Origin: Paenibacillus sp. FSL H7-0326
GTDB lineage: Bacteria > Bacillota > Bacilli > Paenibacillales > Paenibacillaceae
Direction: 5' to 3'
Assembly (NCBI RefSeq): GCF_001955535.1
Contig: NZ_MPVN01000003.1
Coordinates: 558,001-622,000, forward strand
DNA: 64,000 nucleotides
Every line of letters starts with the position of its first letter. Position 1 is the first letter of the stretch. Below are positions 12,777-16,465 of this stretch, piece after piece. A program made the position numbers and the translations under genes. The notes under the pieces are model-generated. The model searched no databases. It was not told the origin of the DNA and saw nothing but the letters and a program-made list of their open reading frames with translations.

Positions 12777-14111
12777 ATGAAAAACAAAAAGCTGCGCATC
12801 TATACCGAACGTCATATGTTGCGAAACCCTGCACTTACTGTATTGATGAAGATAAGCGTTGATGGACATTTTGATGAGCCGCGTTTTGAAAAGGCATTGC
12901 AAAAATTAAAACATGTTCATCCGTTACTTTATTCGTCCGTTGTCATAGATAATGACGGAGAGGCTTATTATCGTGAAAATGCCGTCCAACGACTTGAATT
13001 GCATTGTGCAATGCGTGAGCGTAAAGATCAATGGCTGGAGGTTGCCGAAACCGAAAACAAGCATCCCTTTCATTGTGAAAAAGGGCCACTTGTTCGTTTT
13101 TTTGTGTTTTACAGTGAAACGGACTTCGATATTCTGGCCATTGTACAACATTTGATTGGTGACGGTGACGCTATTGCCCGTTTGTTGCGGGACGTGGTAA
13201 CTGCTTATGCGGGTATTGATTTGTCACATCAAGATCAAATACTCATTTCAAGTCAAAATGATTTTCCGCATACCGCAACACCAACTTTTCTTGTAAAAGC
13301 ATTTACCCGAACAATGAATAAAATGTGGGATAAAGGTGAGAGGCGACGTTTTGGAGAACATGAATTTCAAGAAATGTTTTTTAACTATCATCAAATAGCG
13401 GATATTGGATTATCTTATTCAACGATAAACTCAAGTGAGATGAATGACTTATACATAGCATGCAAAGCACATGGCGTAACCGTAAATGAAGCAATTGTAA
13501 CAGCATTAATTGGGGCTATGCAAGAAATTTGCCTACACAGGAGCAATAAAAAAACGGTTGTAGGAGTTCCAATAAATATGAGAAGACAACTTTCATTACC
13601 CACGGATGATTGCTTGGGCAACTTTGCTTCAGCTGTTACCATTAAAGAGCTCTACGATACAAAAAAAGATTTTTGGCAAAATGCCGTCCAGGTGCGAAGC
13701 AAGTTGAAATCAAAGTTGGAATCTGCTAAAGCCCCGTGGGTGCCCTTGAATCTTTTTGCACTCTTGAATCCTTTGCTTACTGACGCTATGTATTTTGCCG
13801 CTTATGGCAACTGTGATGATATGGCGGCAAAGAAAGCGGCGGCTATGCTTTCGATTGATAATCCTTCTTCTACGGCAGTATCTAATCTTGGACGGTTAAA
13901 TTTTGATTGCCAGATAGGTTCATACCACATTCGTGATATGGTATTCTTTGCACCCAAAGCCCCCGGCAGTTATGTTGTGCTTGGAGTGGCCACATTAGCA
14001 GATAAAATGCAGATTGGATTTAGCTATGATCGAAAAAAAATATCATCTGATACTATGGAGGATGTAAGTTCAACGATGCTTGAGTTGCTAATCTCGAGAT
14101 CACAGAGGTAA
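12777..14111 (+). CDS. Stand-alone condensation-domain/acyltransferase-fold protein
   Basis: 444 residues, resembling the chloramphenicol-acetyltransferase/NRPS condensation fold (PapA, alcohol acetyltransferase or wax-ester-synthase type). Seen: QHLIGDG at 124-130, which fits the HHxxxDG catalytic motif with the first His replaced by Gln but the catalytic second His (H125) and DG kept; a later VGVPINMRRQL stretch matching the family's second half. Known: such enzymes transfer acyl groups to alcohols or amines. No carrier protein or synthetase is adjacent. Start ATG has GTAGGAGGG upstream. Base composition is more AT-rich than the preceding operon. Substrate unknown. Confidence 0.72.
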   Translation: MKNKKLRIYTERHMLRNPALTVLMKISVDGHFDEPRFEKALQKLKHVHPLLYSSVVIDNDGEAYYRENAVQRLELHCAMRERKDQWLEVAETENKHPFHCEKGPLVRFFVFYSETDFDILAIVQHLIGDGDAIARLLRDVVTAYAGIDLSHQDQILISSQNDFPHTATPTFLVKAFTRTMNKMWDKGERRRFGEHEFQEMFFNYHQIADIGLSYSTINSSEMNDLYIACKAHGVTVNEAIVTALIGAMQEICLHRSNKKTVVGVPINMRRQLSLPTDDCLGNFASAVTIKELYDTKKDFWQNAVQVRSKLKSKLESAKAPWVPLNLFALLNPLLTDAMYFAAYGNCDDMAAKKAAAMLSIDNPSSTAVSNLGRLNFDCQIGSYHIRDMVFFAPKAPGSYVVLGVATLADKMQIGFSYDRKKISSDTMEDVSSTMLELLISRSQR

Positions 14112-14257
14112 TGAGGCGCGTCAAAGTTGTGAGAGAGCGGCTGCCAATTGTAATGTTAAGCTGGTGGAATCGCTCGTGATTCGTGACTTTACATAGGAAA
14201 TCAATTATGCTAAGTTAATCAATGTTAGTCTCAATCAATAAGAAAGAGGTGAAAGCA

Positions 14258-14353
14258 ATGTTAACCGTTTTTGGAATTATGTTTGGTGGTAAAAAAGCAA
14301 ACGTGGATATAAAAACAGTTATCGGAGCTTATCCTCAACGACAAATTCAATGA
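14258..14353 (+). CDS. Leader peptide of the ABC-F gene (31 residues)
   Basis: Short frame with a strong ribosome site (AGAGGTGAAAG, 5-8 bases before ATG), ending 43 bases before an intrinsic terminator. Its codons 21-23 carry TTATCGG (14319-14325), which is complementary to the terminator's left arm CCGATAA (14400-14406). That is the layout of ribosome-mediated attenuation, known for antibiotic-resistance ABC-F genes: a ribosome stalled early frees TTATCGG to block the terminator. Peptide function is inferred from position, not from homology. Confidence 0.6.
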   Translation: MLTVFGIMFGGKKANVDIKTVIGAYPQRQIQ

Positions 14354-14395
14354 CATCATGTCTTGTATAGTTGTGAGTGATTTGTATTTAAGCGT

Positions 14396-14424
14396 AACAC
14401 CGATAATTATATCGGTGTTTTTTT
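14396..14424 (+). terminator. Intrinsic terminator acting as attenuator
   Basis: Stem AACACCGAT / ATCGGTGTT (14396-14404, 14411-14419) with a six-base loop and seven T. It lies inside the leader of the ABC-F gene, 200 bases before its start, with an alternative pairing partner upstream in the leader peptide frame. Confidence 0.85.
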
Positions 14425-14479
14425 ATGTTTTTATAATACAAGAAACCAATTGGAAATCCTATTGAAAAGGAGAGATAAC

Positions 14480-14560
14480 ATGGCTATAGAATTGGATGTT
14501 ACGCATGTAATGCTCCGTATAAGTCGATATACTCCATCAAACTTATACGGAGTAAAGTAA
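14480..14560 (+). CDS. Second small leader ORF (26 residues) with embedded hairpin
   Basis: ATG at 14480 follows AAAGGAGAGATAAC. The frame contains both arms of a perfect 12-bp inverted repeat (CTCCGTATAAGT 14513-14524, ACTTATACGGAG 14541-14552). An alternative pairing of AAGTCGATATA (14521-14531) with TATACCGACTT (14571-14581), 10 of 11 bases, would exclude the first hairpin. This looks like a second control stage for the ABC-F gene. No homology for the peptide itself is claimed. Confidence 0.45.
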   Translation: MAIELDVTHVMLRISRYTPSNLYGVK

Positions 14561-14623
14561 TACGGATGGATATACCGACTTTGTAATCATAAGAAAGGAT
14601 GATATACAAAGGAGGATTTAAAT

Positions 14624-16102
14624 ATGTCAATAATCCAAGTTCAAAATTTGTCTTTCTCATATCCGAGCAGTTTCGATAACATCTTTGAAGATGTAAGCTT
14701 TCAGATCGATACAGATTGGAAGCTAGGCTTCATAGGCAGGAACGGACGAGGGAAAACAACTTTTTTCAATTTATTATTAGGGAAGTACGAATACATCGGA
14801 AAAATAAGTTCTTCGGTGGAATTTAATTATTTCCCCTATCCAGTCAAAGATAAAAGTAAATATACCTATGAAATTCTTGAAGAAATCTGCCCTCAAGCGG
14901 AAGACTGGGAATTTCTTAGAGAGATCGCTTATTTAGATGTTGATTCAGAAGCGATGTACCGCCCGTTTGAGACCTTATCGAACGGTGAGCAAACCAAGGT
15001 TTTACTTGCCGCTCTTTTTTTGAATGAAGGACAATTCTTGTTAATTGATGAGCCCACAAACCATTTAGATACGGAAGCTCGTAAGATGGTCTCTGATTAT
15101 TTAAGGAGAAAAAAAGGATTTATTTTAATCTCGCATGACCGTCAGTTTTTAGATGGCTGCGTTGATCATATTTTGTCTATAAATAGAGCAAATATAGAAG
15201 TCCAAAGTGGGAATTATTCGTCTTGGAAACTGAATTTTGATCGCCAACAAGATCATGAAGAAGCAACAAATGAACGCTTGCAAAAGGATATCGGAAGGTT
15301 AAAACAATCTTCAAAACGTTCAGCAGGCTGGTCTAATCAAGTCGAAGCTTCAAAAAACGGAACAACGAATTCAGGATCTAAATTAGACAAAGGATTCGTT
15401 GGACATAAAGCTGCAAAAATGATGAAGCGCTCAAAAAATCTTGAAGCTCGGCAGCAAAAGGCGATTGAAGAAAAGTCGAAGCTCTTAAAAAACGTTGAAA
15501 AGACGGAATCCTTACAGTTAGAACCTTTGGAATACAAATCAAAGGAGCTTGTTCAATTAACTGATGTGTCTGTCATGTATGACGGCCAAATGGTGAATTC
15601 ACCCATAAGTTTTAATGTCGAACCAGGAGATCGAATTGTATTGGACGGGAAGAACGGCAGTGGGAAAAGTAGTATTTTAAAATTAATTCTAGGCCATTCA
15701 ATTCAGCATACAGGCACGGTGAATATAGGTTCCAGCCTCATCATTTCTTATGTTCAACAAGATACCTCGCATTTAAAGGGGATGTTATCGGATTTTATTG
15801 AGGAACATCAGATTGATGAAACGTTATTTAAATCCATTTTAAGAAAAATGGATTTTGACCGAATCCAGTTTGAAAAAGATATTTCCTTTTATTCAGGTGG
15901 ACAGAAGAAAAAGCTGCTTATCGCGAAGAGTTTATGTGAAAAAGCTCATCTATATATTTGGGATGAACCATTAAATTTTATTGATATTTACTCACGCATG
16001 CAGATTGAAGAGCTTATCCAAACCTTTAAACCGACGATGGTTTTTGTGGAACATGACCATACCTTCCAAAAGAGAATTGCTACAAGAACAATAAAAATGT
16101 AA
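14624..16102 (+). CDS. Lsa-type ABC-F ribosomal protection protein
   Basis: Cytosolic ABC-F ATPase, 492 residues. Seen: two nucleotide-binding domains with Walker A GRNGRGKT and GKNGSGKS, signatures LSNGEQ and YSGGQKK, Walker B LLIDEPTNHLD and LYIWDEPLNFID, no membrane segments, and a linker between them (about 205-300) rich in Lys/Glu. The linker motif SAGWSNQVEASKNG and overall layout recall Lsa(A). Known: Lsa-type proteins dislodge lincosamides, pleuromutilins and streptogramin A from the ribosome. Start ATG has AAAGGAGG. A 500-base leader with two small frames and an attenuator precedes it, suggesting drug-inducible expression. The AT-rich composition and adjacent IS3 remnant hint at acquisition. 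Confidence 0.9.
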   Translation: MSIIQVQNLSFSYPSSFDNIFEDVSFQIDTDWKLGFIGRNGRGKTTFFNLLLGKYEYIGKISSSVEFNYFPYPVKDKSKYTYEILEEICPQAEDWEFLREIAYLDVDSEAMYRPFETLSNGEQTKVLLAALFLNEGQFLLIDEPTNHLDTEARKMVSDYLRRKKGFILISHDRQFLDGCVDHILSINRANIEVQSGNYSSWKLNFDRQQDHEEATNERLQKDIGRLKQSSKRSAGWSNQVEASKNGTTNSGSKLDKGFVGHKAAKMMKRSKNLEARQQKAIEEKSKLLKNVEKTESLQLEPLEYKSKELVQLTDVSVMYDGQMVNSPISFNVEPGDRIVLDGKNGSGKSSILKLILGHSIQHTGTVNIGSSLIISYVQQDTSHLKGMLSDFIEEHQIDETLFKSILRKMDFDRIQFEKDISFYSGGQKKKLLIAKSLCEKAHLYIWDEPLNFIDIYSRMQIEELIQTFKPTMVFVEHDHTFQKRIATRTIKM

Positions 16103-16139: not shown

Positions 16140-16319
16140 TCAAAAAACCTGAAATAATAGTAAACAAAAGACTCCCCTAGAGGGAGTCTGGTCAAGACCC
16201 CTTCTAACAAGCTGATTCCTGTACTCAACAGGGGTCAGCTTATTTAGTTTACTTTGCGCTCGTTCTTCATTATAAAAACGGATAAACTCTTCAATTCTTC
16301 TTTGTGCTTCCTCGATTGT
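16140..16319 (-). pseudogene. IS3-family transposase fragment (OrfB C-terminus)
   Basis: Minus-strand frame encodes VTIEEAQRRIEEFIRFYNEE and LNKLTPVEYRNQL, the conserved C-terminal end of IS3/IS150-type integrase-like transposases. The rest of the transposase and the other insertion sequence end are absent; sequence above about 16320 no longer matches. A terminator-like hairpin (AGACTCCC/GGGAGTCT, 16169-16189) lies beyond the coding end. It is a remnant between the ABC-F gene and the alcohol dehydrogenase gene. Confidence 0.8.
16161..16189 (-). terminator. Terminator-like hairpin at the IS3 remnant end
   Basis: AGACTCCC/GGGAGTCT stem (16169-16189) followed on the minus strand by TTTGTTT. It may serve the ABC-F gene on the plus strand or be the original IS end. 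Confidence 0.6.
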
Positions 16320-16465
16320 GACATGCTGATTTGGGCGCCAACCTGTGGCAGCATGTCGTGGTATGCATGAGACGTCACGTGAATACATTATCGCTGTTTG
16401 GATAACTTAGTTTCATGAACTCATTTAAGGTATTTGATTGAGTTATCAATTTCTAGGAGGTAACC

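What the first reader, a model, noticed from the sequence alone, without database searches (positions are those of the whole stretch)
14112..14626. Two-stage leader with attenuator upstream of an Lsa-type ABC-F gene
A 31-codon frame with a strong ribosome site overlaps TTATCGG, which can pair with CCGATAA in the left arm of a downstream intrinsic terminator (14396-14424). A second 26-codon frame contains mutually exclusive hairpins (14513/14541 versus 14521/14571). Drug-stalled ribosomes on leader 1 would free the antiterminator. This would be a dual-leader arrangement, which I have not seen described for Lsa-type genes.
Basis: partly seen in the sequence, partly recalled or inferred. Interest (0 to 1): 0.75.

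Follow-up and report, generated by a model that had tools for sequence, protein, structure and literature searches.

The report
Two-step drug-sensing leader before lsa
Upstream of an antibiotic-resistance gene that protects ribosomes, this bacterium carries two short decoy genes in a row, one that appears to decide whether the messenger RNA is completed and one that appears to decide whether it is translated; the same modules recur before related resistance genes, including mobile ones from hospital germs.

Summary
Before the Lsa-family ABC-F gene (14624-16102) lie two leader systems in series. Stage 1 (14188-14424): likely promoter, 31-codon frame, anti-antiterminator, antiterminator, intrinsic terminator. 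Relatives support both: stage 2 helices pair in 97-100% of cells over 32 sequences, each with compensatory change, though from few events; leader 2 keeps a VTH motif a fixed 9 nt before the first hairpin; three Paenibacillus loci have lost the middle, so that the first hairpin itself holds the lsa SD. Stage 1 is not the usual first stage of lsa (MIN type, as in vmlR) but one found mostly before cfr-type rRNA methyltransferase genes: 12 of 14 distinct copies, including mobile cfr. Six loci read [stage 1]-cfr-[MIN]-[stage 2]-lsa, so the window looks like cfr's first stage joined to lsa's second. Drug response could not be tested. Best reading: transcription attenuation plus erm-like translation attenuation in series. 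New variant of a known kind.

The parts
14188..14216 (+). likely promoter: TTTACA, 14 nt, TGC-TAAGTT (extended -10)
   Evidence: TTTACA-N(13-15)-TGN-TANNNT stands before 13 of 14 distinct copies of the module (14 of the 15 rows, two of which are one record); L022 differs in TTTACA. The pattern was chosen after looking; chance 0.0004 per 90 nt of the same composition. Not reported by the standard scan.
14246..14251 (+). SD of leader 1 (GAGGTG)
   Evidence: sequence; GAGGTG in 11 of 13 aligned copies, GGGGTG in L090 and GAGGTA in L106
14258..14353 (+). leader 1 frame, 31 codons, MLTVFGIMFGGKKANVDIKTVIGAYPQRQIQ
   Evidence: in 13 of 13 copies the frame is open across the antiterminator strand, which is read in all three frames
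14262..14321 (+). anti-antiterminator: 14262-14272 with 14311-14321 (one C-A mismatch in the window)
   Evidence: fold -18.8 kcal/mol; 96.4% of cells paired over 10 copies, no covariation
14319..14406 (+). antiterminator: 14319-14325 with 14400-14406, and 14327-14331 with 14389-14393
   Evidence: fold -22.1 kcal/mol; 96.7% of cells paired over 10 copies, two pairs changed on both sides, 22 of 500 shuffles as high; a third such pair in the mobile cfr copy L106
14396..14424 (+). intrinsic terminator of stage 1
   Evidence: -12.6 kcal/mol; each pair kept in 10 to 13 of 13 copies
14466..14474 (+). SD of leader 2 (AAAGGAGAG)
   Evidence: sequence; a purine-rich stretch is visible before the start in 32 of 35 rows; in L010, L013 and L021 the script took a more upstream in-frame ATG
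14480..14560 (+). leader 2 frame, 26 codons, MAIELDVTHVMLRISRYTPSNLYGVK
14498..14506 (+). VTH codons, proposed stall site
   Evidence: V, T and H each in 34 of 35 rows, with synonymous third bases (ACG 17, ACA 17), at a fixed 9 nt from the H codon to the first hairpin
14513..14552 (+). helix 1: 14513-14524 with 14541-14552
   Evidence: fold -16.7 kcal/mol, z -6.7; 98.5% of cells paired over 31 distinct rows, one pair changed on both sides; a further compensatory C-G to T-A pair in plasmid locus L108, outside that alignment
14523..14579 (+). helix 2 (alternative): 14523-14526 with 14576-14579, and 14534-14538 with 14565-14569
   Evidence: 99.6% of cells paired, three pairs and 17 cells changed on both sides
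14575..14615 (+). helix 3: 14575-14576 with 14614-14615 and 14579-14585 with 14605-14611; covers the lsa SD AAAGGAGG (14608-14615)
   Evidence: fold -14.4 kcal/mol, z -6.2; 97.4% of cells paired, G-C to T-A in three rows
14624..16102 (+). Lsa-family ABC-F ribosomal protection protein, 492 aa
   Evidence: NCBIfam NF000167 822.7 bits, cut-off 750; best-scoring solved chain Lsa(A), 7nhk

Best explanation
Two ribosome-sensing switches act in series on one transcript. Stage 1, transcription: without drug, ribosomes run through leader 1 and over the antiterminator strand, or leader 1 stays folded in the anti-antiterminator; either way the terminator forms and RNA polymerase stops at about 14424. A ribosome held on the first codons of leader 1 blocks the anti-antiterminator, the strand 14319-14331 pairs with 14389-14406, and transcription continues. 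Stage 2, translation: on read-through RNA, helix 1 and helix 3 form and helix 3 hides the lsa SD. A ribosome held at the VTH codons of leader 2 reaches to about 14520, opens helix 1 and leaves 14523-14538 free to form helix 2 with 14565-14579, which takes helix 3 apart and frees the SD. Shown by sequence and comparison: the elements, their conservation, and that helix 2 shares bases with helices 1 and 3. Inferred: that drugs cause the stalls, which drugs, and that the two stages multiply. Origin, inferred: stage 1 is a promoter-attenuator cassette of cfr-type genes joined to the native second stage of lsa.
For: Compensatory change in each stage 2 helix. VTH kept as a peptide while the LR codons inside helix 1 follow the RNA: L108 changes CGT to TGT together with the other arm. 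Three shortened loci (L009, L015, L029) in which helix 1 holds the lsa SD directly. Stage 1 antiterminator conserved in all three frames and with some covariation. All 11 stage 2 matches among 398 class genomes precede lsa, six of them new records. Stage 1 precedes cfr in 12 of 14 distinct copies. Six loci hold [stage 1]-cfr-[MIN]-[stage 2]-lsa. A toeprint edge at +16 from the start codon was measured on the vmlR leader (PMC9226507, section read).
Against: No expression or drug data. Compensatory cells come from few events: in helices 1 and 2 almost all are the Clostridia rows, in helix 3 one three-member clade. The number of pairs changed on both sides is reached by 166 to 212 of 500 shuffles, and helix 2 slid by 3 also has three such pairs. 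The anti-antiterminator shows no covariation; for it and the terminator together a slid version scores as high, and the window has a mismatch in it. In the window's minimum-energy fold, though not in the centroid, part of the VTH codons pairs with bases after helix 1. Drugs that stall at the start codon would not bring a ribosome to helix 1, so one drug may not open both stages. Helices 1 and 2 overlap by only a few bases, so a pseudoknot with both is not excluded. L036 has the cfr-type first stage before lsa without stage 2, which leaves the order of events open. Stage 2 was not found in L036, L037, L038 and L088, nor in 37 of the 48 other, mostly Clostridia, loci, two of which have no readable upstream.
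Confidence: 0.78

Rival explanations
1. Only stage 1 regulates; stage 2 is a relic or a coding by-product.
For: Stage 2 was not found in several lsa relatives (L036, L037, L038), so lsa can do without it. The ABC-F leaders whose papers I saw work with one uORF (PMC9226507, PMC10201436).
Against: Compensatory changes in the three helices and a VTH motif in 34 of 35 rows; presence in Bacilli and Clostridia; retention with different first stages.
Confidence: 0.1
2. Stage 2 is a ligand-binding or protein-binding RNA that does not need translation of leader 2.
For: Alternative helices over an SD would also suit a riboswitch. No Rfam family reached its gathering score in the window, so a described class is not indicated.
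Against: Leader 2 has its own SD, a conserved peptide motif with synonymous third-base changes, and a fixed spacing from the motif, not from the start codon, to helix 1.
Confidence: 0.06
3. Only stage 2 matters now; the window's stage 1 is a leftover of a lost cfr gene.
For: The genome holds no close cfr: two matches at 38 and 35% identity, probably rlmN (label inferred). The window's nearest group in the Lsa tree (fork 85/93, not starred) has other first stages.
Against: The window's stage 1 keeps every element, and leader 1 stays open across the antiterminator strand despite lacking about 50 nt that the other copies have.
Confidence: 0.15

Closest known systems
vmlR leader of Bacillus subtilis (PMC9226507; abstract and sections 18 and 23 read)
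   Same: uORF, anti-antiterminator, antiterminator, terminator and an SD-covering hairpin before an ABC-F gene; transcription and translation attenuation together
   Different: One uORF (MIN) serves both layers; here each layer has its own leader, and leader 1 is a 31-codon frame starting MLTVF.
cplR leader of Clostridioides difficile (PMC10201436; passages read)
   Same: Antibiotic-responsive uORF with transcription and translation attenuation in synergy
   Different: There the terminator hairpin itself sequesters the SD; here terminator and SD are about 185 nt apart with a second leader between them. That paper gives MAGN as the LsaA uORF.
erm translational attenuators: ermB with two leaders (PMC8274638; abstract read), ermC (recalled)
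   Same: A leader stall switches helices 1:2 and 3:4 to 2:3 and frees the SD
   Different: Here this is the second stage behind a transcription attenuator. The motif is VTH; it is not the RLR motif described for macrolide leaders (PMC6310831, passages read).
Leader before mobile cfr (annotated as hypothetical protein WP_013356267.1)
   Same: Same MLTVF leader, antiterminator and terminator module as the window's stage 1
   Different: Stands before a 23S rRNA methyltransferase gene, with no stage 2 between terminator and gene
Leader before mobile lsa(B)
   Same: Same stage 2 (82.5% identity over 171 bases)
   Different: Its first stage is MIN-like, with ATGATTTACTAA

Membership tests
Lsa family of ABC-F ribosomal protection proteins | score above the curated NCBIfam cut-off | tested here: met
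   NF000167 822.7 bits against 750
Lsa family of ABC-F ribosomal protection proteins | resistance to lincosamides, streptogramin A and pleuromutilins | not testable with these tools
   no phenotype data
ribosome-mediated transcription attenuator (VmlR-like) | uORF with SD, and anti-antiterminator, antiterminator and terminator that exclude each other | tested here: met
   the anti-antiterminator rests on folding and conservation only
ribosome-mediated transcription attenuator (VmlR-like) | MIN uORF of the vmlR group | tested here: not met
   window has MLTVF and no MIN match; MIN exactly in 15 and nearly in 6 of 31 Bacilli-group lsa relatives
ribosome-mediated transcription attenuator (VmlR-like) | induction of read-through by ribosome-targeting drugs | not testable with these tools
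   no expression data
one uORF for both layers, terminator hairpin holding the SD (CplR-like) | terminator hairpin sequesters the SD of the resistance gene | tested here: not met
   terminator ends at 14424, SD starts at 14608
four-segment (erm-like) translational attenuator | 1:2 and 3:4 helices excluded by 2:3, with 4 holding the SD | tested here: met
four-segment (erm-like) translational attenuator | translated leader that stalls with drug just before helix 1 | tested here: inconclusive
   motif VTH and its spacing are conserved; stalling itself not tested
cfr-type promoter-attenuator module (defined here) | MLTVF/MITVF leader start and the strand AAAACAGTT[AG][CT]CGG[AC]GC within 110 nt | tested here: met
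   window and 13 other distinct copies, 12 of them before cfr-type genes

The most novel reading that the evidence does not exclude
Genes against peptidyl-transferase drugs share a kit of exchangeable leader cassettes, and lsa uses two in series as a two-input gate: leader 1 reads stalls at the first codons and decides transcription, leader 2 reads stalls at VTH in elongating ribosomes and decides translation, so that lsa is made only when both signs of drug-bound ribosomes are present.
Probability: 0.4. Interest if true: 0.75.

Novelty: new variant of a known kind. Interest (0 to 1): 0.62.

Why it matters
The ABC-F leaders whose papers I could read use one uORF for both layers. Here two separate leaders with different geometry sit in series, and both occur as cassettes before cfr and lsa genes, including mobile ones whose leader is annotated as a hypothetical protein. 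How such genes come by their drug specificity could be tested by swapping leaders on a harmless reporter. VTH is a candidate stall sequence whose drug is not known.

Tried and rejected
Rfam at gathering scores: no match in the window. One-uORF model with the terminator holding the lsa SD, as for cplR: rejected, since the terminator ends about 185 nt before the SD. Start-codon stalling as the trigger of stage 2: disfavoured, because the edge at +16 would be at 14496, 17 nt short of helix 1. A conserved leader 1 peptide across the antiterminator strand: rejected, since the strand is read in all three frames. A wide spread of stage 2 through the phylum: not seen, 1 of 398 genomes, the window's own (with Infernal's stricter filters). 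A published second leader of lsa: not seen. A published cfr leader: not seen; older subscription work on the cfr upstream region may exist (recalled, not seen). Start-stop uORFs as drug sensors in bacteria: nothing fitting in the listing.

Five of the 11 class matches, the window's own included, were in the model already.

Full report
Setting. The gene at 14624-16102 is a Lsa-family ABC-F protein (NF000167, 822.7 bits, cut-off 750). Its next best match in its own 6.0 Mb genome has 29% identity. The gene is A+T-rich (36% G+C against 45% for the window). The gene before it (12777-14111) has only weak matches, to condensation and acyltransferase proteins.

Stage 1. Leader 1 (14258-14353) has a good SD and starts MLTVF. 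Its start strand 14262-14272 pairs with 14311-14321 (-18.8 kcal/mol), the strand 14319-14331 pairs with 14389-14406 (-22.1 kcal/mol, two helices), and 14396-14419 forms a terminator (-12.6 kcal/mol) before a T run. First and last together (-31.4) lie below the antiterminator, so termination is the expected default (inference from the folds).

Who else has stage 1. The start of the module was found in 4 of 392 genomes of the order and, with a slightly wider pattern, in 4 of 398 of the class; the window's genome is in both. Of these seven genomes six have it before a cfr-type gene and one, the window's, before lsa. With loci and two plasmids there are 14 distinct copies: 12 before cfr-type A2503 methyltransferase genes (L011, L016, L019, L020, L022, L090, L091, L092, L106, L109, L110, L111) and two before lsa (window, L036). 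The 12 proteins match that of L091 at 74-94% identity, L091 itself aside; L091's scores 617.5 bits for TIGR04432, cut-off 550. The set is not an unbiased sample: one search looked for lsa neighbours, and the plasmids were found with a cfr leader as query. Mobile cfr on a Staphylococcus aureus plasmid has the module, with the leader annotated as a hypothetical protein; 109 of 72,556 plasmid records match part of the L019 leader region, none over 80% of it.

Over 13 of the 14 copies (L109, where the terminator stretch is absent, was left out) each antiterminator pair is kept in 10 to 13, with changes on both sides at three pairs, one copy each. On ten copies 22 of 500 shuffles do as well. The strand AAAACAGTT lies in frame 0 in nine copies, frame 1 in three and frame 2 in one, yet the leader is open across it in 13 of 13 and its stop begins 25-72 nt after the start of that strand. 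This fits a strand that must be translated over and not a conserved peptide. The anti-antiterminator is conserved (96.4% of cells) but does not covary, and for it and the terminator together one slid version has as high a covariation score (0.048 against 0.044). A promoter of the form TTTACA-N(13-15)-TGN-TANNNT stands before 13 of 14 copies, though the standard scan does not report it in the window.

Stage 2. The helices were counted on alignment A1: 32 of the 40 sequences with stage 2 among the window and the loci. Left out were L045-L049, identical to L044 in this stretch, and three shortened variants. Helices 1 and 3 pair in 98.0% of cells and helix 2 in 99.6%; slid versions pair in 14 to 59%. 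Changes on both sides: one pair in helix 1, three in helix 2, one in helix 3. The number of such cells and the covariation score are not reached in 500 shuffles, but the number of such pairs is (212 and 166 of 500), and helix 2 slid by 3 columns also has three such pairs with 9 cells against 17. Related sequences can exceed shuffles without structure, and the changes are few events: almost all in helices 1 and 2 are the Clostridia rows (GGTGA/TCACC where Bacilli have CCATC/GATGG), and those in helix 3 are the clade of L023, L026 and L035. A further independent change, C-G to T-A in helix 1, is in plasmid locus L108. Helix 2 shares bases with helices 1 and 3 and each covaries, so both states appear to be selected (inference). 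Helix 3 spans the lsa SD, with a GA/GA internal loop.

Leader 2. Over 35 rows V, T and H at codons -5 to -3 before helix 1 are kept in 34 each, with two threonine codons used 17 times each, while codon -1 shows eleven amino acids. The motif lies outside the three helices; in the window's minimum-energy fold, not in the centroid, part of it pairs elsewhere. Its distance to helix 1 is fixed and its distance to the start codon is not. With an edge at +16, as toeprinted on the vmlR start codon, a ribosome with H in the P site covers up to 14520 and leaves the strand of helix 2 free. L108 changes CTCC/GGAG to CTCT/AGAG, which keeps helix 1 and replaces the arginine codon. In L009, L015 and L029, neighbours in the Lsa tree (94/93) and so perhaps one event, the middle is deleted and the 3' arm of helix 1 is the lsa SD: a simpler form of the same switch.

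Distribution. Stage 2 or its short form is in 39 of the 80 loci (38, L082; L059 and L076 have under 25 bases upstream): 28 of 31 in the Bacilli group (L009-L038, L051), 11 of the 48 mostly Clostridia loci, not in L088. Among 398 class genomes it was found in 11, all before an lsa-type gene; five of these (the window and the records of L016, L024, L034 and L082) were in the model already and six are new. In 398 phylum genomes only the window's was found. It stands before lsa(B) or a Priestia lsa on 11 of 72,556 plasmid records. In the 31 Bacilli-group relatives the first stage is MIN exactly in 15 and nearly in six; the other ten are different or too short to read.

Origin. L011, L016, L019, L020, L022 and genome G699 hold [MLT stage]-cfr-[MIN stage]-[stage 2]-lsa. 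Removal of the middle would give the window. In the Lsa tree the window's nearest group (L010, L013, L021, L030; fork 85/93, not starred) has other first stages and L036 is elsewhere. Exchange or deletion is likely; its direction is not proven.

What is shown and what is not. The elements, their conservation, the sharing of bases between helices and the sharing of the cassette are shown. Drug stalls, their specificity and the joint action of the stages are inferred. Of ABC-F leaders in papers I saw, vmlR (sections of PMC9226507), cplR (passages of PMC10201436) and are5sc/tiaA (passages of PMC12421871; two overlapping uORFs, one translated) rest on one working uORF each.

Noticed in passing
L023 2607, L035 2566, L088 2771: First stages with a start codon followed at once by a stop (ATG TAA in L023 and L035) or after one codon (ATG GAG TAA in L088), in the TTTCTTGC/GCAAGAAAG attenuator type; a minimal uORF could suffice for drugs that stall at the start codon.
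   Followed up: partly
L026, 1390-1789: A cfr-type gene preceded by what looks like an attenuator of the CAAGAAAG type and a second leader-like frame, then 150 nt to lsa with stage 2 and no further terminator seen: possibly a cfr-lsa operon with dual leaders.
   Followed up: no
L109, 1812-1995: The copy of the stage 1 module before cfr(B) on an Enterococcus faecium plasmid lacks the terminator stretch.
   Followed up: no
L037, last 180 bases before lsa: Helix 3 over the lsa SD seems kept while the VTH leader and helix 1 are gone: perhaps a partly decayed stage 2 (by eye).
   Followed up: no
L107 (lsa(E) plasmid), 1082-1500: lsa(E) has the TTTCTTGC attenuator type with an MYNFSC frame, and a CCGACTTTGC/GTAAAGGAGG pairing near its SD that resembles helix 3 (by eye).
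   Followed up: no
window 16140-16388, minus strand: A frame resembling the end of an IS3-type integrase just after lsa (resemblance recalled, not searched).
   Followed up: no
L011, L016, L019, L020, L022, L026: Full-length cfr-type genes directly upstream of lsa; short cfr-like remnants upstream of lsa in L015 and L028.
   Followed up: partly
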